Positions 1-53,801 of a stretch of DNA of 64,000 nt are shown here, one piece after another (the stretch's first letter is position 1; every line of letters begins with the position of its first letter). Where the stretch lies: NCBI RefSeq assembly GCF_905475395.1, contig NC_058338.1, positions 2,109,001-2,173,000 on the forward strand, written 5' to 3'. The stretch comes from Chrysoperla carnea. Lineage: Eukaryota; Arthropoda; Insecta; Neuroptera; Chrysopidae. The position numbers and the translations under genes are program-made. Under the pieces are notes generated by a model. The model saw only the letters and a list, made by a program, of their open reading frames with translations, made no database searches and had not been told where the DNA came from.

Positions 1-1105
1 TCGAGATAAACATAATAAATCATTAAAACTACTGCAAGCCGAAATACTTCGAGGTCGTAAATGATCAATACTTTTATTGTGTTGGAGTAAACCAATGTTC
101 GACGATGTACATGCGAAGCCACCAGAATCAGGACTTGATCCTAAATTTGATAAAGATTGAGTCGATGATGAACGATTTTTTTCTGCACTTTTTAATTCAT
201 CGGCAATTTGCCGCAGTTCTTTACCTAAACAAGAAAGACTGGTCTTAATTCAATATCGACGTCAAACGCTGCCATTCATAATGCTAAAAATAAATGTCAT
301 AGTATGTATCAGAGTTGGCAGCCATCAGTTCATACTGTCGTGAGAAGCTATAGTTATAGCTCGTCTAACTTGCTCGAGTAACTTGAGCGTTGAACCTGTC
401 GTAACATTGTTTTTCACGAAAATCAAGAATAAAAATGACTTCATGTTTTGGCTAGACTTTCTTTATTATATCAATAATTGCCTGTCAATTTTTGGAAAGT
501 CATTAAATAGCATTTTCTTCATAATAATCTTAACAATTCAAAAAAAAATGAAATGAATTTTACCTAATTGATGCCAATCAGTTGCTAAAGGTCCAATATC
601 AGATGATCGTCGATTATAACGTGATGTATTTGAAAATTGTACTAACGATATTGAATGAAATTTTTCATTTTCTTCATCTTTTTCACTTAAATCGATGGAT
701 TCACATGACGATGGCATTGTTTGAGTACCAATTGTTCGAGTTACAGCACATTTTAAAAGTTTACTTGTATTCGAATTTGAATAATTTGTATTTAAAACTG
801 GTAAACTGCCTGTAAAAAAAATTACAGGGTGTATCACGTGATACTAAAATTTAGTTTACACTATCATTTCAATATTGCCATTGAATTTGTATCCTACGAC
901 TTTTTAAGCTTTTATCACACTTACCTGATAAATTAGCTGAATTATGTAAACTTTTATGTTGCCATCGAATTGCTCTTGGTGGTCGACATGCTAAACGCGA
1001 TGTTATCATCGAATTATCAACGATCCATGGTGATAAACATTCATTTGATATTGGTTCACATCGTTCAGATTGTTGTAACTTTTGTGAAGAAGATGAAGCC
1101 ATCAC
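1..1105 (-). CDS. Unrecognised gene with a BH3-like motif (5' part, 3 exons, runs off left edge)
   Basis: Three minus-strand exons join in phase: 1105-925 (ATG at 1105, donor CAG|GTAAGT), 809-564 (acceptor TTTTTACAG, donor TTAG|GTAAAA) and 224-1 (acceptor TTGTTTAG), open to the edge; 217 residues are visible. The protein is Ser/Asn-rich and mostly looks disordered. The exon 2/3 junction creates residues 142-153, LGKELRQIADEL. This fits the BH3 pattern of four hydrophobic positions (L142, L146, I149, L153) around a small residue and Asp (A150, D151), as in the Bim and Bmf death motifs that bind the groove of Bcl-2 proteins. No other domain is recognised. A membrane tail, if any, would lie outside the window. 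The splice model is well supported by phase. A pro-apoptotic role is inference from a short motif, and a chance amphipathic helix is possible. Confidence 0.6.
420..545. repeat. Dispersed repeat, copy 1 of 2 seen
   Basis: Lies in the second intron of the BH3-like gene. About 110 bases resemble 37445-37560 in a ZPR1 intron: both have a run with TTATATtAATAATTG, CTGTCAATTTATG-like sequence and a TCTTCaTAACAATCTTAA end. No coding sequence is visible. Family unknown. Confidence 0.5.
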
Positions 1106-2473: not shown

Positions 2474-5400
2474 TTAGTGCAGATGAAAAGTAGACGGTTT
2501 AACTTCAGGATCACAATAATTTTTTGTCGAATTAAAATATTCATTTGCTATTTGGTTCGTTTCACTAGTTCCACTTTCCTCGTCTGTAACAACAACCCCA
2601 ACCTGACCGGATGAAGTTTCATCTTTTGGTGGTTTCTTCACAACACTTGGTTTCGTTACATTCGTTGTTTGGCCATCTTTACCACTTCCATGCCGTTTTA
2701 GTAAATGTCGTTTTAAATCGCGTGTTAATCTAAATGTACTCTCACACATGGTACATCCATGAGGTTTGAAACCAGTGTGAACCCATCCGTGTACTTTGAG
2801 TTCGTGTGCACGCCGAAACTGTTTACCACAATTGGCAGCCGTACACACATGAAGTTTCTCATTTTTATGGAACGTTTTGTGAACATGTAACGATGCTTTC
2901 TGCTTAAAACATTTCCCACATAAATCACAAACAAAAGGTCTGGCTCCAGTGTGAATGTTCATATGATCATCTCGAGTATTTTTCGATGCAAAACAACGTC
3001 CACAAATTTCACACGGGTACTTTTTCACTCCATGATGTAGTTCTTTAATGTGACGACTTAAACCACTCGATAAACGAAACGTTTTCCCACATAAGTGACA
3101 GAAAAACGCTCGTACTCCCGTATGAATAGTCTGATGACGCAGGAAATGATACGGTAAATGTATAACTCTTGGACAATGTTCACATTGATAATGAGGTTTT
3201 CCTTCATATTCAATTCTACACCGGGCTAATAAATCAGAATTTTGTTGTGTACGACCACGTTTGAGCGTCTCCTTTTCTGGAACATCAGAATGTAATTCTT
3301 TACGATGTTTTTGCATTTGATATTTTCGAGGAAATTCTTTCGAACAAACATCACAGCTAAACGTTGGTGTGATTTCTGGATGACGTATTCGAATGTGACG
3401 TTTTAAATCGTGTTTAATTGCAAATAATGAGTTGCAAATGTTACATAATTCTTTGTCCTCTGAAGATGGTGTTGTTGGCACAGTTGTTTCATGTTCAGAT
3501 TCCTCGGTTTTGATTTCTACTCCAAGTGATTTTGATTCTTGCTCGTGATTTTCATTCTTAACCGTTTCATTTGATGTTTGATGAGCTTTCGCACGATGTT
3601 CTACCATTAGATCTCGTTCAGGAAAACCATAGTCACAAATCTCACAATAATACCTGGGTTCGTTTGTAGGTCGTCCTTTTGGTAGACTTTGTGTTTTATG
3701 TAACGTTTCAGCCAAGTGTGATTTGAAATGTTTTAAAGTTTTGAATGTTTCTTGACATGTGTCACAACTATAAAGCTTCTTTCGGGGAACATTTTCTTCT
3801 TCACTAGGTGGTAAAGGTGAAGCTGTAACATCACCTCTATCATCGTCCGAGTCGCTGTTATCTTCTGTTTTAATACATGTTTCAGGCTGTGTTGATGTCG
3901 GTACAATATTTTGATTGGATAACAAAGATTTCTGTGCGTTGTGAAATGATGAAAAGCTGACGAAAGCAATTGTTTCAGATCTGAGAAAAAAAAATTTTAA
4001 GTAGAGAAAATCGTGGGAAAAATAATTCATCAAACCTACCCATCTTGTTGCTTGTTTTTTGTGGAAACATTATAGAAATTCTCATTTTTTTTAGATTCTT
4101 CAAATTTTTCTTCGGTAATATCTTCTAGTTCTTCGAAATTTTCTAATTTCTAAAAATTAAAATACATAATTTTTAATTTGATACATAAAAATTTCGTACC
4201 ACGGTGTTTGTGTTTGAATTTCTCCGAAACGGCGTGACCAATTTCAATGAAATTTTTTTTGTATATTCGATAGGTATGAGAATAGGTCGTAAAGTACTTT
4301 TCACCCTCCTTACCCCCAATCTATGATGGTGAAAAAGGAGATGACAGTTTCTATGTATATAATGTCTATGTTACAAAGATTTTCTATTTCTTATTCTCAC
4401 AAGCAGTATGTTAGAAATGTTTCTTTATTAATCGAAATTCTGAGACTATATTTTTTAATTGTACGAAAAATCGAATCCGATTTACCGTTTTACCGCATGG
4501 GTCAAGAACGAGAGAATTTAGAATAAAGAAATTGATTTATCTTGATCGATATGCGAGGATTTTTCAAGCAGAAATTTTCACTATGCTGAAACGAGACCAG
4601 ATTTTTAAAACAAAAGATTACAGTGGGGCATATATAAGCATCTTCTCAGCTAGTCAGACTTCGAGAAAGTAAATTGGCTGGCACTGAATAACAAGGTCAG
4701 ACTGATCTGAGCAGAGAGCCTCTTCATTCCCTTTAACTCTGGCGTTAAAGGGAATGAAAGGAACACCAGGTTCAGAATGTTTGGGTCCGAAACCTTTCAT
4801 CCATCAATTTAGGTAGAGAAGCTGTGGGATTTTTGCGTGCCATGGAGATGTATAGCCTTCGAGTGACAGTTTGTTTTCAAGGAGGGCATAGATAGGAGAA
4901 TATTCTTTAAACTTACAACAGCACCAAATAGTGTTTTTAATCGTCGATCCGCCTCAATGCTGATCTCTGCCAGGTCATGCCAAGTGAGTAACGTGCTCGC
5001 GCATTGATAACAACATCTACTTGGTAAGTTTGTATCTGTTCGCTCCACTCTGAATGGCAAATGTCGATTGATTTTCATTTGTAGTTGATACTCCAAACCT
5101 TCACCTTCGTAGATCGATATTAAATGTTCACTTCGATTTCCACACAAACGACACAGCATCTCCACGCTAATCACTTCATCCACTTTCATACTTTCATTAT
5201 TTTGTGGTTTTGATTTTTTTTCTGATTTTGATGTTCGAGTTTTTATTCTTTCACTTGAATGTCTCTCTTCTTTTGATCGTTCCCCTTTTTCTGGTTTCTT
5301 TAAAATGAGAAATTATCACTTTTTCAAAAGTTATCAAGGACAATAAAGGTCATTTGGTTGTTAATAACTTTTAAGCTTAAATATAGGTCTGTTAATAAAA

Positions 5401-27862: not shown

Positions 27863-30800
27863 GACTTGTGCTCCACAAGTCATAGTACAATACTATGACT
27901 TGTGCTCCACTCCACAAGTCATAGTAAAATACTGTGACTTGTGCTCCACTCCACAAGTCATAGTAAAATACTATGACTTGTGCTCCACTACACAAGTCAT
28001 AGTAAAATACTATGACTTGTGCTCCACTACACAAGTCATAGTAAAATACTATGACTTGTGCTCCACTGCACAAGACATAGTAAAATACTATGACTTGTGC
28101 TCCACTGCACAAGTCATAGTAAAATACTATGACTTGTGCTAGACTCCACAAGTCATAGTAAAATATTATGACTTGTGCTCCACTGCACAAGACATAGTAA
28201 AATACTATGACTTGTGCTCCACTGCACAAGTCATAGTAAAATACTATGACTTGTGCTAGACTCCACAAGTCATAGTAAAATACTATGACTTGTGCTCCAC
28301 TGCACAAGTCATAGTAAAATACTATGACTTGTGCTAGACTTCACAAGTCATAGTAAAATACTATGACTTGTGCTCCACTACACAAGTCATAGTAAAATAC
28401 TATGACTTGTGCTCCACTACACAAGTCATAGTAAAATACTATGACTTGTGCTCCACTACACAAGTCATAGTAAAATACTATGACTTGTGCTAGACTTCAC
28501 AAGTCATAGTAAAATACTATGACTTGTGCTCCCCTACACAAGTCATAGTAAAATACTATGACTTGTGCTCCACTGCACAAGTCATAGTAAAATACTATGA
28601 CTTGTGCTAGACTTCACAAGTCATAGTAAAATACTATGACTTGTGCTCCACTACACAAGTCATAGTAAAATACTATGACTTGTGCTAGACTCCACAAGTC
28701 ATAGTAAAATACTATGACTTGTGCTCCACTGCACAAGTCATAGTAAAATACTATGACTTGTGCTAGACTTCACAAGTCATAGTAAAATACTATGACTTGT
28801 GCTCCACTGCACAAGACATAGTAAAATACTATGACTTGTGCTCCACTGCACAAGTCATAGTAAAATACTATGACTTGTGCTAGACTCCACAAGTCATAGT
28901 AAAATACTATGACTTGTGCTCCACTGCACAAGTCATAGTAAAATACTATGACTTGTGCTAGACTTCACAAGTCATAGTAAAATACTATGACTTGTGCTCC
29001 ACTACACAAGTCATAGTAAAATACTATGACTTGTGCTCCACTACACAAGTCATAGTAAAATACTATGACTTGTGCTCCACTACACAAGTCATAGTAAAAT
29101 ACTATGACTTGTGCTAGACTTCACAAGTCATAGTAAAATACTATGACTTGTGCTCCACTACACAAGTCATAGTAAAATACTATGACTTGTGCTCCACTGC
29201 ACAAGTCATAGTAAAATACTATGACTTGTGCTCCACTACACAAGTCATAGTAAAATACTATGACTTGTGCTCCACTACACAAGTCATAGTAAAATACTAT
29301 GACTTGTGCTCCACTGCACAAGACATAGTAAAATACTATGACTTGTGCTCCACTGCACAAGTCATAGTAAAATACTATGACTTGTGCTAGACTCCACAAG
29401 TCATAGTAAAATACTATGACTTGTGCTCCACTGCACAAGTCATAGTAAAATACTATGACTTGTGCTAGACTTCACAAGTCATAGTAAAATACTATGACTT
29501 GTGCTCCACTACACAAGTCATAGTAAAATACTATGACTTGTGCTAGACTCCACAAGTCATAGTAAAATACTATGACTTGTGCTCCACTACACAAGTCATA
29601 GTAAAATACTATGATTTGTGCTCCACTACACAAGTCATAGTAAAATACTATGACTTGTGCTCCACTACACAAGTCATAGTAAAATACTATGACTTGTGCT
29701 CCACTACACAAGTCATAGTAAAATACTATGACTTGTGCTCCACTACACAAGTCATAGTAAAATACAATGACTTGTGCTCCACTACACAAGTCATAGTAAA
29801 ATACTATGACTTGTGCTCCACTACACAAGTCATAGTAAAATACAATGGCTTGTGCTCCACTACACAAGTCATAGTAAAATACTATGACTTGTGCTCCACT
29901 ACACAAGTCATAGTAAAATACTATGACTTGTGCTCCACTACACAAGTCATAGTAAAATACTATGACTTGTGCTCCACTGCACAAGTCATAGTAAAATACT
30001 ATGACTTGTGCTCCACTGCACAAGTCATAGTAAAATACTATGACTTGTGCTCCACTACACAAGTCATAGTAAAATACTATGACTTGTGCTCCACTGCACA
30101 AGTCATAGTAAAATGCTATGACTTGTGCTAGACTTCACAAGTCATAGTAAAATACTATGACTTGTGCTCCACTACACAAGTCATAGTACAATACTATGAC
30201 TTGTGCTCCACTGCACAAGTCATAGTAAAATACTATGACTTGTGCTCCACTGCACAAGTCATAGTAAAATACTATGACTTGTGCTCCACTACACAAGTCA
30301 TAGTAAAATACTATGACTTGTGCCCCACTGCACAAGACATAGTAAAATAGACATACTAGACATTGTGGAGTCTAGCACAAGTCATAGTATTTTACTATGA
30401 CTTGTGCAGTGGAGCACAAGTCATAGTAAAATACTATGACTTGTGCTAGACTCCACAAGTCATAGTAAAATACTATGACTTGTGCTCCACTGCACAAGTC
30501 ATAGTAAAATACTATGACTTGTGCTAGACTTCACAAGTCATAGTAAAATACTATGACTTGTGCTCCACTGCACAAGTCATAGTAAAATACTATGACTTGT
30601 GCTAGACTTCACAAGTCATAGTAAAATACTATGACTTGTGCTCCACTACACAAGTCATAGTTAAATACTATGACTTGTGCTCCACTACACAAGTCATAGT
30701 AAAATACTATGACTTGTGCTCCACTACACAAGTCATAGTAAAATACTATGACTTGTGCTCCACTACACAAGTCATAGTAAAATACTATGACTTGTGCTCC

Positions 30801-33770
30801 ACTGCACAAGTCATAGTAAAATACTATGACTTGTGCTCCACTGCACAAGTCATAGTAAAATACTATGACTTGTGCTCCACTACACAAGTCATAGTAAAAT
30901 ACTATGACTTGTGCTCCACTACACAAGTCATAGTAAAATACTATGACTTGTGCTCCACTGCACAAGTCATAGTAAAATACTATGACTTGTGCTCCACTAC
31001 ACAAGTCATAGTAAAACACTATGACTTGTGCTCCACTGCACAAGTCATAGTAAAATACTATGACTTGTGCTCCACTGCACAAGTCATAGTAAAATACTAT
31101 GACTTGTGCTAGACTTCACAAGTCATAGTAAAATACTATGACTTGTGCTCCACTACACAAGTCATAGTACAATACTATGACTTGTGCTCCACTCCACAAG
31201 TCATAGTAAAATACTGTGACTTGTGCTCCACTCCACAAGTCATAGTAAAATACTATGACTTGTGCTCCACTACACAAATCATAGTAAAATACTATGACTT
31301 GTGCTAGACTCCACAAGTCATAGTAAAATACTATGACTTGTGCTCCACTGCACAAGTCATAGTAAAATACTATGACTTGTGCTAGACTTCACAAGTCATA
31401 GTAAAATACTATGACTTGTGCTCCACTGCACAAGTCATAGTAAAATACTATGACTTGTGCTCCACTACACAAGTCATAGTAAAATACTATGACTTGTGCT
31501 CCACTGCACAAGTCATAGTAAAATACTATGACTTGTGCTCCACTACACAAGTCATAGTAAAATACTATGACTTGTGCTCCACTACACAAGTCATAGTAAA
31601 ATACTATGACTTGTGCTCCACTACACAAGTCATAGTAAAATACTATGACTTGTGCTCCAATGCACAAGTCATAGTAAAATACTATGACTTGTGCTCCACT
31701 ACACAAGTCATAGTAAAATACTATGACTTGTGCTCCACTACACAAGTCATAGTAAAATACTATGACTTGTGCTCCACTACTCAAGTCATAGTAAAATACT
31801 ATGACTTGTGCTCCACTACACAAGTCATAGTAAAATACTATGACTTGTGCTCCACTACACAAGTCATAGTAAAATACTATGACTTGTGCTCCACTACACA
31901 AGTCATAGTAAAATACTATGACTTGTGCTCCACTACACAAGTCATAGTAAAATACTATGACTTGTGCTCCACTACACAAGTCATAGTAAAATACTATGAC
32001 TTGTGCTCCATTACACAAGTCATAGTAAAATACTATGACTTGTGCTCCACTACACAAGTCATAGTAAAATACTATGACTTGTGCTCCACTGCACAAGTCA
32101 TAGTAAAATACTATGACTTGTGCTAGACTTCACAAGTCATAGTAAAATACTATGACTTGTGCTCCACTACACAAGTCATAGTACAATACTATGACTTGTG
32201 CTCCACTCCACAAGTCATAGTAAAATACTGTGACTTGTGCTCCACTCCACAAGTCATAGTAAAATACTATGACTTGTGCTCCACTACACAAATCATAGTA
32301 AAATACTATGACTTGTGCTAGACTCCACAAGTCATAGTAAAATACTATGACTTGTGCTCCACTGCACAAGTCATAGTAAAATACTATGACTTGTGCTAGA
32401 CTTCACAAGTCATAGTAAAATACTATGACTTGTGCTCCACTGCACAAGTCATAGTAAAATACTATGACTTGTGCTAGACTTCACAAGTCATAGTAAAATA
32501 CTATGACTTGTGCTCCACTGCACAAGTCATAGTAAAATACTATGACTTGTGCTCCACTACACAAGTCATAGTAAAATACTATGACTTGTGCTCCACTGCA
32601 CAAGTCATAGTAAAATACTATGACTTGTGCTCCACTACACAAGTCATAGTAAAATACTATGACTTGTGCTCCACTACACAAGTCATAGTAAAATACTATG
32701 ACTTGTGCTCCACTACACAAGTCATAGTAAAATACTATGACTTGTGCTCCACTGCACAAGTCATAGTAAAATACTATGACTTGTGCTCCACTACACAAGT
32801 CATAGTAAAATACTATGACTTGTGCTCCACTACACAAGTCATAGTAAAATACTATGACTTGTGCTCCACTACACAAGTCATAGTAAAATACTATGACTTG
32901 TGCTCCACTGCACAAGTCATAGTAAAATACTATGACTTGTGCTCCACTACACAAGTCATAGTAAAATACTATGACTTGTGCTCCACTACACAAGTCATAG
33001 TAAAATACTATGACTTGTGCTCCACTACACAAGTCATAGTAAAATACTATGACTTGTGCTCCACTACACAAGTCATAGTAAAATACTATGACTTGTGCTC
33101 CACTACACAAGTCATAGTAAAGTACTATGACTTGTGCTCCACTACACAAGTCATAGTAAAATACTATGACTTGTGCTCCATTACACAAGTCATAGTAAAA
33201 TACTATGACTTGTGCTCCACTACACAAGTCATAGTAAAATACTATGACTTGTGCTCCACTACACAAGTCATAGTAAAATACTATGACTTGTGCTCCATTA
33301 CACAAGTCATAGTAAAATACTATGACTTGTGCTCCACTACACAAGTCATAGTAAAATACTATGACTTGTGCTCCACTACACAAGTCATAGTAAAGTACTA
33401 TGACTTGTGCTCCATTACACAAGTCATAGTAAAATACTATGACTTGTGCTCCACTACACAAGTCATAGTAAAATACTATGACTTGTGCTCCACTACACAA
33501 GTCATAGTAAAGTACTATGACTTGTGCTAGACTCCACAAGTCATAGTAAAATACTATGACTTGTGCTCCACTACACAAGTCATAGTAAAATACTATGACT
33601 TGTGCTCCACTACACAAGTCATAGTAAAGTACTATGACTTGTGCTCCACTACACAAGTCATAGTAAAATACTATGACTTGTGCTCCACTACACAAGTCAT
33701 AGTAAAGTACTATGACTTGTGCAGTGGAGCACAAGTCATAGTATTTTACTATGCTCCACAAGTTAAATAT
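27862..33770. repeat. 39-bp palindromic satellite array, about 150 copies
   Basis: Each monomer is TACTATGACTTGTG, an 8-base loop, CACAAGTCATAGTA, then AAA: two perfectly complementary 14-base arms, so every unit can form a hairpin. Loops vary (CTCCACTA, CTCCACTG, CTCCACTC, CTAGACTC, CTAGACTT) while arms hardly vary. Higher-order repeats are visible: 31116-31390 recurs at 32130-32404, 1014 bp (26 monomers) apart, and a three-monomer pattern recurs around 28.06-28.3 kb. Orientation flips at about 30345-30420 and at 33715-33755. 39 = 3 x 13 keeps frames open on both strands, with no sign of a real protein. Confidence 0.95.
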
Positions 33771-34058: not shown

Positions 34059-37000
34059 ATGACTAATCCGGACGAGAATATTACAAAAAAAACCAATATT
34101 TCGTGATTTAAATGCAGACGATGTCGAATCTGAGGTAACAGTAATCGAATCGATGTGCATGAATTGTGAAGAAAATGTAAGTAAAAGAAAAATTTCGACA
34201 ATACTGTACAAAAATTTATTCGGAAACTCAAAGTTCAAAATGAACGAAATTTATTTTAAATTGATTTTTTTTGTCAATATTCCGAATTCGTGTTAAAAAC
34301 TTTAATCGAAGTTTGTTTTTAGGGTCAAACTCGATTACTTTTAACAAAAATTCCATTTTATAAAGAGGTTGTCATTATGTCCTTCAAATGTGAACATTGT
34401 GGTTTTCAAAATAATGAGATCCAATCGGCTGGACGAATTGCTGAGCGTGGTATACGAATTACACTTAAAGTGACTGCTGTAAGTGATTTAAATCGTCAAG
34501 TTGTTAAAAGTGATTTTACAAGTGTCAAAATTTTGGAAGTTGATTTTGAAGTACCAGCACAAAGTCAAAAAGGAGGTAAGTGTTGAGTAAATTTTTACAA
34601 AATTACTTTCAGTCCAAACAGTAATCAAAACTTAGCAAATAAGTTTCTGGTAACTGGTAAAATTTTTTGAAAAGGGCATAAAGTCCCAGCGGGGTGCATA
34701 TGTAGTCCAAATTTTTGTAAAATTCCCTTTTTTTGGCTTTAAATTGTCATCTAGTTGGTATTTTTGGTCGCTGAATACGAATCTGATGTCAGATTACACG
34801 AATCTTGTCCCGTATTCGAAAAGTCGTGCCATTTTTGACCCGAAATTCCACTAAAACGGAAGACTAAATAAATATTATGGCTCAAAATGTTATCTAGAAG
34901 GTATTTTTGGTCGCTGATTACGAAACCGATGTTAGATATATGGATTCTGTCACGTATTTCGAAAACCGTGCCAATTATTTGCCATGAATTTCACTTTTGC
35001 TCGTATTTTTTTTAGAAGTAACAACAATTGAGGGTATTATTGATAGAGCTGTAGCCGGATTGAATCAAGATCAAGTTACACGTCGAATTCAACATCCAGA
35101 AGTTGCTGAACAAATTGATCAATTTATACAAAAATTAAACGATTTAAAAACTGTTAAAACTCCATTCACAATTGTAAGATCCATGAAAAATTTTTATAGA
35201 CTTATAAGTCCCGTCAAGCTAGATGAAATTTCTTTCTGTTAGGTTAGGTTAGGTTAGAGTGGCTGTCCTGGAGTGGGACACACTTAGATCATAGAGTCCG
35301 TTGTGATAACGTAAATGGTATGGCCCATCCCCGGCCACTATTCCATGAACCATTTGGAGCTGTTTAAGAACAGCAGGAGGGCTTTGACGCCGACTGACTT
35401 CAGGTCGGAGAGGTCGTCAATAAGAGGCTGGCTCAAGTAAGTCCATCACCTCATGACAAGAGCTGGACAGTGACAGAGAAGATGAGACATTGTCACCTCC
35501 TCGTCACCACTGTGACAGCTCCTGCAGTAGTCGTGATACACTGCCAGGCCTAAGCGTTCAATCTGTACAATAAATAAAATTTCACTTAACTTGATGGAAG
35601 TATTATGGAGGAAAAAAAAAACCGTATAAATTTTTGTTTGTTTAGATACTTGAAGATATTTCTGGTAATGCTTTTATAACGAATCCTAATGCACCAATTA
35701 AAGATCCAAATATGACAACTGTACATTTTAAACGTAACAAAGATCAAAATCATTTATTAGGAATTTTTACTACGGATGAGGTAAGTAACACCAAACACAA
35801 AATAGTTATTCACTTCTTATACATCTTCAGGATACCAGCATATTGCAGAACTCACAGTCATCATATAATACAAAACTATGGGTCTCTGAATGAAACTGTT
35901 TTACTTATATTATTAAACACTAGACAGCGCCACATATTTCAATTCCAAATAGCGATATTAGTCGAAAATTTAACTTCATAACATGGGGATCTCTGATGAT
36001 TTCACTTGTAGGGTCTATATGGAGGAGGATGTAACCTCCATACATCTGCAAGATGTCAGGTTTAGAATGTTTGGGCTCAAAACATTGTATCCGCCAATCC
36101 CGACTTTCTGCGTGGCGTCTAGCCTCGACTTGCTTAAAATAAATCTCTTACCCGGAGATGTCTCGCCCTCGGGTGACAGATTATTCACAAGGAGGGCACT
36201 GAGGACCTTTAGGTCCTTTCTAGCAAAAGGACTTCCCAGATTTATAATGTAATATCTAACCTTCAGCACAAATCACAAAGGTAACTGGGACCTGTGGTTT
36301 AATACAATTAAAGCCGAGTTCTGTTCTGCCTATAAAAAGGCATACGTGTCGTGCCCTGATACGTTACCTCCAAATTTCCAAAACCCAAATGAAAATCTAT
36401 AAATCTACGCTTTTCAGAAATTTTATAAGAATTAATTTATAGGTTGGCGAAGATTCGAATGAATCGAAATTATTACATCCGATTGAAGAAAATGAATTTA
36501 CACTAGAAGATTTACAGGGTGAAGTTTTACAAATACCAACTAATTGTAATAATTGTGGATCACCCTGTCAAGCCAACATGAAAGTTACAAGTTAGTTTAC
36601 TCAATATTACTTTTTCTTTCCAAAATTTAATATAATAAAAAAAAAACTATAACGACATTGAAAGAATTGAGATAATTTCGATTGCAAAGCAACCATTGTC
36701 AGTAGCTAAATTTATTCTGTATTATATGAATAAATTTAGCTACTGATGATGGTTCAAAACATCGATATTTATCGAAATGATAGCCTGTTGTTTGTAATTT
36801 TTTTTTAAATAGAATTTTATTTCGAGTATCGAGTATGGTATTTATTTCAATAAATATTCTAAAATTAATTTCTTTGTAGATATACCACATTTTAAGGAAG
36901 TAATTATAATGGCACTTGCCTGTGACACTTGTGGAAATCGAACAAATGAAGTGAAAAGTGGTGGGGGTATCGAAGAGAAAGGTGTACGAATTGAAGTGAA

Positions 37001-38335
37001 AATTGCAAGTCGTGATGATTTCTCACGTGATGTTTTAAAATCCGATACGTGCAGCTTACAAATACCCGAATTAGAATTGGAAGTTGGTCCGAATGCAATT
37101 GGTGGTCGTTTTACAACGGTTGAAGGTATTGTTACAGCGATTAAAGAACAATTGGGTGTGTCAGGGCATATGTTTGGTGATAGCGAAGATCCGAAAGCTG
37201 GTGATAATATGGAAAAGTAAGTATTTTTTGAAGTTATGTTCCTTTAGACGCGCTATGAAGGGCATTTTTATGATGCGCGTGCACATGATGACATGAAAAC
37301 TACATATTGAAGTTAGAAAGTCTTTTGTTACCACCATGAAGTTAGTCGATAAACGAAATGTCACTCACAATAGACAAGGATATATACAGGGTGTCTACTT
37401 AAGTTGGCTACTACATATGATTGGCCAAGAACAGGACCAAGAACAGGAATGCCTTCATATTTAGGATAGGTTTTCTCCTGATTATATTAATAATTGGCTG
37501 TCAATTTATGTGGAAATTTGTCATAAAATTGTATTTTCTTCGTAACAATCTTAAATAAATTTTTTTCTATTTTTTTTTATAGATTTTTAAATCGATTGGA
37601 TGATGTTTTAAAATCAAAAACATCTGTTACGCTTGTATTGGATGATCCTGCTGGAAATAGTTACATCCAGGTATTTTAAGTTATATTAATTCCTTTTGTA
37701 TTCTCCCCTGTTAAGGAAATCCACGCACAATCCTAATATGCCGATAAAACAAGTGAAAACAAACAATTGGCTGAGTTAATTGTTAAAATACCATGTATAG
37801 ACAGTTTGTTTTTTGACGTCACGTATGTAAAGAAAGATAACCACATTAATTACTTACATTTTATTTGGTATTTCATTAAATTATATTATTCTACGGCTTT
37901 TTATTAGAAAACTTAATGATAACGAGTGTAAATTTTGTGTTGTAAATTCATTTTTTTAAAGTGTAAATTATACATTGAACTGTCACCAATTGACAGATCA
38001 CGTACTTATACGTCATCAACAGAGAGCGCCAAAAAAACTGCGTTTAAATATCTCAAAATTAGAATGTATTTTAAATATTTTTTTACACTTAAATACAACA
38101 TTTTTAAACAGTATTTATATTTTTTACTTTGTTATAACGGTGTAAACAATGAATTAAAAATATAAAAAAAATACAGGAATATTCCCTTTTGAATTCTTTT
38201 TTTTTTTTACAGAGCTTAAGTGATGCAAATGAACCGGATGACCAATTGAAAATCACTCGTTATGAACGTACGTTCGAACAAAACGATGAATTAGGTTTAA
38301 ATGATATGAAAACGGAAAATTATCAAGAAACTTAA
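34059..38335 (+). CDS. Zpr1: Zinc finger protein ZPR1
   Basis: Conserved eukaryotic eEF1A-binding zinc-finger protein. Exons: 34059-34176, 34323-34575, 35016-35173, 35646-35780, 36443-36590, 36880-37216, 37583-37670 and 38213-38335; about 452 residues. Both ZPR1 repeats are present: first Cys4 finger CMNC ... CEHC and second CNNC ... CDTC, each followed by an alpha/beta domain ([23 protein letters not shown]). Oddity: the exon lengths sum to one base more than a multiple of three. The ATG at 34059 reads [11 protein letters not shown] and then leaves frame at an 8-A run (34085-34092), while [14 protein letters not shown] continues in the shifted frame. The rest of the gene is intact, so an extra A from sequencing or assembly, or a natural indel, is likelier than a pseudogene. 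The next in-frame Met (within ESMCMNC) would lose about 20 conserved residues. Confidence 0.92.
35232..35560 (-). mobile_element. LINE C-terminus and 3' end with (CCTAA)n tail, minus strand
   Basis: In ZPR1 intron 3. The reverse complement encodes [20 protein letters not shown] then CPAL, the Cys-Cys-His-Cys knuckle of RNase H-bearing LINEs. It ends in CTAACCTAACCTAACCTAAC, equal to (TTAGG)n on the plus strand (35239-35258). It differs from the (ATT)n-tailed family. Confidence 0.75.
35975..36260 (+). mobile_element. LINE C-terminal/3' fragment in ZPR1 intron 4
   Basis: Translation [20 protein letters not shown] then [12 protein letters not shown] matches the LINE at 50.4 kb (MGLSNDPTCRACMEHDEIAI ... 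VRFRMFESVIL), and the tail block GACAGATTATTCACAAGGAG follows. Truncated, same strand as the host gene. Confidence 0.7.
36692..36747. repeat. 27-bp-arm hairpin in a ZPR1 intron
   Basis: CAGTAGCTAAATTTATTC at about 36699-36716 and GAATAAATTTAGCTACTG at about 36727-36744 are perfect complements with a 10-base loop; outer bases extend the arms to 27 with two mismatches. It sits in a sequence beginning CTATAACGACATTGAAAGAA, a relic of the CAGTCAAAACC MITE family. Confidence 0.7.

Positions 38336-42005: not shown

Positions 42006-53801
<11,796 letters not shown>

What the first reader, a model, noticed from the sequence alone, without database searches (positions are those of the whole stretch)
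1..1105. Candidate BH3-only-like protein assembled across an intron
The motif LGKELRQIADEL appears only after exons 2 and 3 are joined (564 to 224, minus strand), so single-frame ORF calling misses it. It has all four hydrophobic positions, the small residue and the Asp of BH3 domains, close to the Bim/Bmf pattern. BH3-only proteins were long thought to be missing from insects; to my memory one has been reported in Drosophila (Sayonara). Seen: motif, phase-consistent splicing. Inferred: any role in apoptosis.
Basis: partly seen in the sequence, partly recalled or inferred. Interest (0 to 1): 0.78.

Follow-up and report, generated by a model that had tools for sequence, protein, structure and literature searches.

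The report
Lacewing protein with BH3-like helix
A small, mostly unstructured protein of the green lacewing carries a short helix that looks like the death-triggering switch of human proteins such as BIM and PUMA, plus a possible docking site for a dynein light chain; if real, it would be one of very few such switches proposed in insects, but chance resemblance is not excluded.

Summary
The gene is real. On the minus strand of Chrysoperla carnea chromosome 2, three exons (1102-925, 809-564, 224 to nine bases past the window edge) encode 218 residues with clean splice sites and coding-type codon use. Residues 141-152, LGKELRQIADEL, fit the BH3 pattern at every defining position and score like genuine BH3 motifs. 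I add a GTQT motif (87-90), a dynein-light-chain (LC8) docking type, about 50 residues before the core: the BIM/BMF order of parts. The genome encodes a BAX-like and a BOK-like protein.

Against: the match alone is not proteome-significant (expected chance hits 0.16 to about 6, depending on the null); no Pfam BH3-only family is hit although known BH3 peptides ring; there is no membrane tail; no orthologue was reachable, so conservation is untested. Best reading, about 0.42: an LC8-held BH3-only-like protein. Main rival: an LC8 client whose short heptad helix resembles BH3 by chance.

The parts
925..1102 (-). Exon 1 (coding, ATG at 1102; in-frame TAG three codons upstream of the ATG)
   Evidence: donor CAG|GTAAGT; codon log-odds +0.29 per codon
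810..924 (-). Intron 1, phase 1
   Evidence: GTAAGT...TTTTTTTTACAG; codon log-odds negative in all 3 minus-strand frames
564..809 (-). Exon 2 (coding), holds the GTQT motif and residues up to the first base of G142
   Evidence: codon log-odds +0.33
718..729 (-). GTQT, residues 87-90: dynein light chain LC8 (TQT) docking-type motif
   Evidence: sequence; TQT in 2.4% of 20,000 shuffles of the protein; GTQT is the core of the phage-selected DYNLL binder (PMC3078936, passages)
565..567 (-). Codon of L141, first hydrophobic position of the BH3-like core, at the 3' end of exon 2
225..563 (-). Intron 2, phase 1; ends TTAG like exon 2, so the core also reads unspliced
   Evidence: GTAAAA...TTTCTTGTTTAG
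1..224 (-). Exon 3 (coding) as far as the window edge; continues to the stop codon at G000:C2:2108992-2108994, outside the window
   Evidence: codon log-odds +0.26; AATAAA signals follow the stop
193..224 (-). Main part of the BH3-like core, residues 142-152 (GKELRQIADEL); the codon of G142 is split by intron 2
   Evidence: predicted helix, pLDDT block mean 92

Best explanation
A real lacewing gene, without a detected paralogue, encodes a 218-residue, largely disordered protein that works like a BH3-only protein of the BIM/BMF type. In healthy cells the GTQT segment docks it on the dynein light chain LC8. When released or upregulated, its amphipathic helix (core LGKELRQIADEL, residues 141-152) inserts L141, L145, I148 and L152 into the groove of a Bcl-2-fold protein, with D150 facing the BH1 arginine. 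The likeliest target here is the BAX-like protein, which it would activate or expose. Shown: gene model, motif, a confident helix in a single-sequence model of the exon 3 piece, presence of a BAX-like, a BOK-like and dynein-light-chain-family genes. Inferred: every interaction and any role in cell death.
For: Coding gene: all three exons have positive in-frame codon log-odds, both introns and both flanks are negative in the three minus-strand frames (stops penalised), GC by codon position 0.38/0.48/0.13, 218 open codons against 7.7% stops per codon by composition. Motif: 18.2 bits against a PSSM of 13 recalled BH3 motifs, within their leave-one-out range (9.3-27.3) and above 6 of the 13; best of 659 positions of neighbouring coiled-coil exons is 10.9. 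HMM 11.4 bits, 0 of 20,000 shuffles reach it, next best of 2,974 window ORFs 7.9. Among 8 PDB sequences at E up to 10, two are PUMA BH3 peptides (E 0.98 and 1.1) and one is the dF3 peptide, which reads LAEELRQLADEL (E 0.56). Helix followed by low-confidence chain. GTQT at 87-90, upstream of the core as in BIM and BMF; TQT by chance 2.4%. Targets: BAX-like gene on C4 (best PDB hits BAX, E 3e-11) keeps an Arg at the BH1 position (TWERVV); BOK-like gene on C1 (BOK, E 2e-25); 5 dynein-light-chain-family matches.
Against: The motif alone is not proteome-significant: 0.16 (HMM), about 2 (PSSM) or about 6 (coiled-coil composition) chance hits expected. Pfam BH3-only models do not hit it, while the BIM, BMF, PUMA, BAD and HRK peptides each ring, and PUMA and BAD even cross-hit the BIM model. 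PDB E-values are near 1 and the top hit, E 0.29, is sc-apCC-4, by its name and repeats a designed coiled coil. The GTQT site lacks the usual Lys/Arg at -3 and acid at +2. No hydrophobic C-terminal tail (best 19-residue Kyte-Doolittle mean 0.47). BCL-XL follows BAX closely as PDB match of the supposed target (E 8e-10 against 3e-11), so 'BAX-like' is not firm; that the dynein-light-chain genes include LC8 itself was not tested. No orthologue found, so no conservation evidence.
Confidence: 0.42

Rival explanations
1. An LC8 client with a short self-associating helix. LC8 brings two chains together through the TQT site, and the helix downstream (W138, L141, L145, I148, L152, A155 at heptad a/d positions) forms a short parallel coiled coil. 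The BH3 resemblance is chance, because BH3 h1-h4 spacing (4-3-4) is also heptad spacing. The protein would be a scaffold, not an apoptosis regulator.
For: W138-L141-L145-I148-L152-A155 follows 3-4-3-4-3 spacing (sequence). Top PDB match is a designed coiled coil by its name. About 6 equally good chance motifs are expected per 7.5 million residues under coiled-coil composition. LC8 sites lie in disordered regions and LC8/Ctp dimerises its client Panx (PMC7861614, passages).
Against: Only about 2.5 heptads. Small residue plus Asp at exactly the BH3 positions is not required by a coiled coil. 659 positions of coiled-coil exons next door reach only 10.9 bits.
Confidence: 0.33
2. A helical nuclear export signal or another amphipathic docking helix, in a disordered regulatory protein unrelated to Bcl-2 biology.
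For: W138-x2-L141-x3-L145-x2-I148 fits a helical export-signal spacing (recalled, no call). Highest hydrophobic moment in the protein is in this segment, 0.61.
Against: A second segment at 35-53 has nearly the same moment (0.60), so the moment is not distinctive; export signals do not call for the A149-D150 pair.
Confidence: 0.15
3. Not a functional coding gene (pseudogene or artefact of joining frames).
For: No transcript data or orthologue was available to me. One of the three reverse-strand frames of the joined CDS also has a slightly positive codon log-odds (+0.04).
Against: Three exons in one phase, good splice sites, polyadenylation signals, codon use typical of two other genes of this genome in each exon separately (0.26-0.33), no frameshift.
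Confidence: 0.04

Closest known systems
BIM (BCL2L11) and BMF, vertebrate BH3-only proteins
   Same: Disordered protein with an LC8-type TQT motif followed downstream by a single BH3 helix (LC8 binding of Bim and Bmf: PMC3078936, passages; of Bim: PMC3419265, start of abstract in the listing; the order of the parts is recalled).
   Different: No Pfam BIM or BMF model match; GTQT without the Asp-Lys lead-in; no hydrophobic C-terminal tail; 6 of 12 core identities with BIM, 4 of 12 with BMF.
PUMA (BBC3)
   Same: Highest BLOSUM62 score of 13 recalled BH3 cores over 12 residues (36; 6 identities) and the only natural BH3 peptide among the 8 PDB hits.
   Different: No PUMA Pfam match.
Sayonara (CG14044), the Drosophila BH3-only protein
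   Same: Insect protein that acts through a BH3 motif and interacts with Bcl-2-fold proteins (PMC10107002, abstract and sections 6, 10, 27).
   Different: Sayonara has 378 residues, two coiled coils, belongs to PTHR21974, and its BH3 is inferred only in Muscomorpha; the lacewing protein has 218 residues and only one short heptad stretch. I had no Sayonara sequence to compare.
EGL-1 of C. elegans
   Same: Ecdysozoan BH3-only protein with one BH3 helix (named in PMC8998228, passages).
   Different: 3 of 12 core identities (recalled EGL-1 sequence).

Membership tests
BH3-only proteins | BH3 pattern: four hydrophobic positions, small residue, Asp | tested here: met
   L141, L145, I148, L152, A149, D150; 18.2 bits, within the leave-one-out range of 13 known motifs
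BH3-only proteins | No other BH domain / no Bcl-2 fold | tested here: met
   No Bcl-2 family match in Pfam at E up to 10
BH3-only proteins | BH3 segment is an accessible amphipathic helix | tested here: met
   Single-sequence AlphaFold2 model of the exon 3 frame from L141 (76 residues, mean pLDDT 53): helix 2-22, pLDDT block means 92 and 82; 52 of 76 residues below 50; hydrophobic moment 0.61. Residues before L141 were not modelled.
BH3-only proteins | BH3 residues conserved in orthologues | not testable with these tools
   No insect collection; scans of viral and prokaryote contigs found no relative
BH3-only proteins | Binds a Bcl-2-fold protein and triggers BH3-dependent death | not testable with these tools
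   Needs binding and cell assays
BIM/BMF family (PF08945, PF15185) | Match to the family profile | tested here: not met
   No match at E up to 10 for the full protein or the 30-residue BH3 segment; control peptides of BIM and BMF match their own models at 8.7e-18 and 3.6e-9
BIM/BMF family (PF08945, PF15185) | LC8-binding TQT motif N-terminal to the BH3 | tested here: inconclusive
   GTQT present at 87-90, but -3 is Ile and +2 is Met, unlike the published natural consensus (the Bmf site itself has Leu at +2); binding untested
BIM/BMF family (PF08945, PF15185) | Hydrophobic C-terminal segment (recalled) | tested here: not met
   Best 19-residue hydropathy mean 0.47, at residues 21-39; C-terminus ends LLCLSRKK
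Sayonara / PTHR21974 | C-terminal coiled-coil regions | tested here: inconclusive
   Only one short heptad stretch seen by eye; no PTHR21974 profile or Sayonara sequence was on hand

The most novel reading that the evidence does not exclude
Lacewings, and perhaps other non-dipteran insects, keep a BIM/BMF-type death switch (LC8-tethered, single BH3) together with a BAX-like effector, so the tripartite vertebrate-style pathway was lost only along some insect lines and did not vanish from insects as a whole.
Probability: 0.2. Interest if true: 0.82.

Novelty: new member of a known kind. Interest (0 to 1): 0.45.

Why it matters
[quoted passage not shown] A lacewing protein with a canonical BH3 and an LC8-type site, in a genome with a BAX-like gene, would make it directly testable whether insects kept mitochondrial death control of the vertebrate kind. 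If the motif is chance, the case is a useful warning about BH3 pattern matching.

Tried and rejected
Orthologues: protein scans of viral contigs (2 pattern hits, none confirmed) and of prokaryote genomes (58 pattern hits, none confirmed), hoping for misfiled insect contigs; no relative. Paralogues in the own genome: no match at E up to 10 beyond the three exons (4 candidates scored). Literature text search for six peptide strings near the motif: 0 papers. Literature searches for insect, arthropod or invertebrate BH3-only proteins and for Bim/Bmf with LC8: in the titles and abstract starts listed, Sayonara was the only insect BH3-only protein I saw. Three of them returned unrelated papers for the most part and say little; listed papers that mention BH3-only proteins, such as the silkworm apoptosis survey PMC3091752, were not opened. 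NCBIfam: no match. The 27-residue TQT segment against PDB: no match. WXG100-like and Mobilization_B Pfam matches (best E 0.013, below their cut-offs) I take as helix-composition noise. Reaper/Grim-type IAP motif: the N-terminus MASSS does not begin with an Ala-Val-Pro-type motif (recalled rule, no call). One search (337 scaffolds) found nothing; the species came.

Full report
Source. The genome has 337 contigs and 559,487,470 bases; the contig with the window is 100,744,152 bases. The published Chrysoperla carnea assembly inChrCarn1.1 has 337 scaffolds, 560 Mb and a chromosome 2 of 100.74 Mb (PMC10116181, passages; abstract start). So the window is chromosome 2 of the common green lacewing (Neuroptera).

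Gene model. On the minus strand: ATG at 1102 with an in-frame TAG three codons before it; exon 1 1102-925; intron 1 924-810 (GTAAGT...TTTACAG); exon 2 809-564; intron 2 563-225 (GTAAAA...GTTTAG); exon 3 from 224 across the window edge to a stop codon whose last base is C2:2108992, nine bases outside the window, followed by AATAAA signals. Both introns are phase 1. The product has 218 residues. GC by codon position is 0.38/0.48/0.13. With codon frequencies of two other ORFs of this genome (zinc-finger ORF and BOK-like ORF) and stops penalised, each exon is positive in frame (0.29, 0.33, 0.26 bits per codon); the other two forward frames of the joined CDS are negative (-0.50, -1.09), of the three reverse frames two are negative and one is +0.04; both introns and both flanks are negative in all three minus-strand frames. 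With 7.7% stop codons expected per codon, 218 open codons are not chance; 0 of 20,000 shuffles of the CDS were open. No paralogue was found.

The motif. Residues 141-152 read LGKELRQIADEL. Every defining BH3 position is met: L141, L145, I148, L152, small A149, D150.

How surprising is it? A PSSM of 13 BH3 motifs (recalled sequences) gives 18.2 bits; leave-one-out scores of those 13 run from 9.3 (BOK) to 27.3 (BIM), six of them below ours. Chance is 3e-7 per position, about 2 in 7.5 million residues with ordinary composition and about 6 with coiled-coil composition. An HMM of nine BH3 peptides (A1; a PDB search with it listed chains named for eight of the nine) gives 11.4 bits, E 0.16 for 15,000 proteins; 0 of 20,000 shuffles of the protein reached it, the best being 9.5. 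Within the window and three neighbouring 10-kb stretches (77,707 six-frame positions) the next best PSSM score is 13.3. As an internal control the BH3 regions of the two lacewing Bcl-2 proteins score only 4.1 and 0.5, so this PSSM does not recognise every genuine insect BH3. A phmmer search of the 30-residue segment against PDB lists 8 sequences: sc-apCC-4 (by its name a designed coiled coil, E 0.29), the dF3 peptide (0.56), two PUMA BH3 peptides (0.98, 1.1), and RelE, PspA, Syn-F4-Link and a Beclin-1 fragment. So the match is as good as real BH3 motifs but could be one of a handful of accidents in a proteome.

Context. A single-sequence AlphaFold2 model of the exon 3 frame (76 residues from L141) shows one confident helix, residues 2-22 of the piece, with 52 of 76 residues below pLDDT 50. 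Mean pLDDT is 53, so only the helix is informative. The segment has the highest hydrophobic moment of the protein, 0.61, though residues 35-53 nearly equal it at 0.60; there is no membrane tail. At residues 87-90 the protein reads GTQT. LC8 (DYNLL) binds peptides centred on TQT; Bim and Bmf are LC8 clients; the phage-selected optimum is VSRGTQTE and the Bmf site is EDKATQTL (PMC3078936, passages). Ours, RTIGTQTM, has the core and the Gly but not the Arg/Lys at -3. TQT occurs in 2.4% of shuffles of this protein.

Possible targets. The Pfam Bcl-2 model finds two genes, and protein searches with each find only itself and the other; exon-split genes may be missed. The C1 protein is BOK-like (best PDB match BOK, E 2e-25); its BH1 reads TWGK, as in BOK. 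The C4 protein is BAX-like (best PDB matches BAX, E 3e-11; BCL-XL follows at 8e-10, so the assignment is not firm); its BH1 reads TWERVV with Arg where BAX has NWGR. An Arg there pairs with the BH3 Asp (recalled). Five matches to the dynein-light-chain family are present; which is LC8 was not tested.

Against membership. The Pfam models for BIM, BMF, PUMA, BAD and HRK ring on their own peptides; PUMA and BAD even reach the BIM model weakly (E 0.051 and 0.0025), while the lacewing segment reaches none, nor does the full protein. It is therefore not a demonstrated member of the BIM or BMF families. Conservation, the test that matters most, could not be made: two collection scans, neither of which holds insects by design, found no relative.

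What is known. BH3-only proteins were described as present in some Ecdysozoa but not in insects (PMC8998228, passages). Sayonara in Drosophila is reported as the first functional case there; its BH3 is inferred only in Muscomorpha, and the authors treat BH3 as a short linear motif that easily arises anew (PMC10107002, abstract and sections 6, 10, 27). In the titles and abstract starts listed by my searches I saw no other insect BH3-only protein, within a library that lacks most subscription journals and all preprints.

Verdict. Gene real; BH3 pattern real; single-frame claim wrong; function open. I lean, at 0.42, to an LC8-held BH3-only-like protein acting on the BAX-like protein, against 0.33 for an LC8 client with a short coiled coil, 0.15 for another docking or export helix, 0.04 for a non-functional gene. 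These odds are judgement, not computed.

Noticed in passing
27874-33722: Tandem array of about 150 copies of a 39-bp unit (95% matches) whose unit contains an inverted repeat; it stays open on both strands and so yields long ORFs that are unlikely to be genes.
   Followed up: partly
L008 (G000:C1:138886126-138887466): A full-length cytochrome oxidase subunit I ORF (542 aa frame) without stops in the standard code, with other bacterial-looking ORFs beside it, about 1.1 Mb from the end of chromosome 1: looks like rickettsial DNA inserted or mis-assembled (the Rickettsia likeness is by eye).
   Followed up: no
1184-1682: Nested inverted repeats (arms 1184-1264/1602-1682 and 1266-1358/1448-1540, 83-84% complementary), a MITE-like element just upstream of the gene.
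   Followed up: no
2474-5312: Upstream neighbour on the same strand: exons with a zf-AD domain (4809-5312) and a C2H2 array (2474-4069), probably one zinc-finger gene.
   Followed up: partly
L001 (G000:C1:75159044-75159349): The lacewing BOK-like protein lacks the canonical Asp in its own BH3 region (VIPRLVAVGVEL).
   Followed up: partly
L002 (G000:C4:60830637-60831156): A BAX-like Bcl-2 protein in a lacewing, distinct from the BOK-like one; flies are described as having two Bcl-2 genes, Buffy and Debcl, so a BAX-like insect gene may deserve its own look.
   Followed up: partly
36813-37220 and 52121-52582, + strand: Exons of ZPR1 and of a PP2A B56 regulatory subunit.
   Followed up: no
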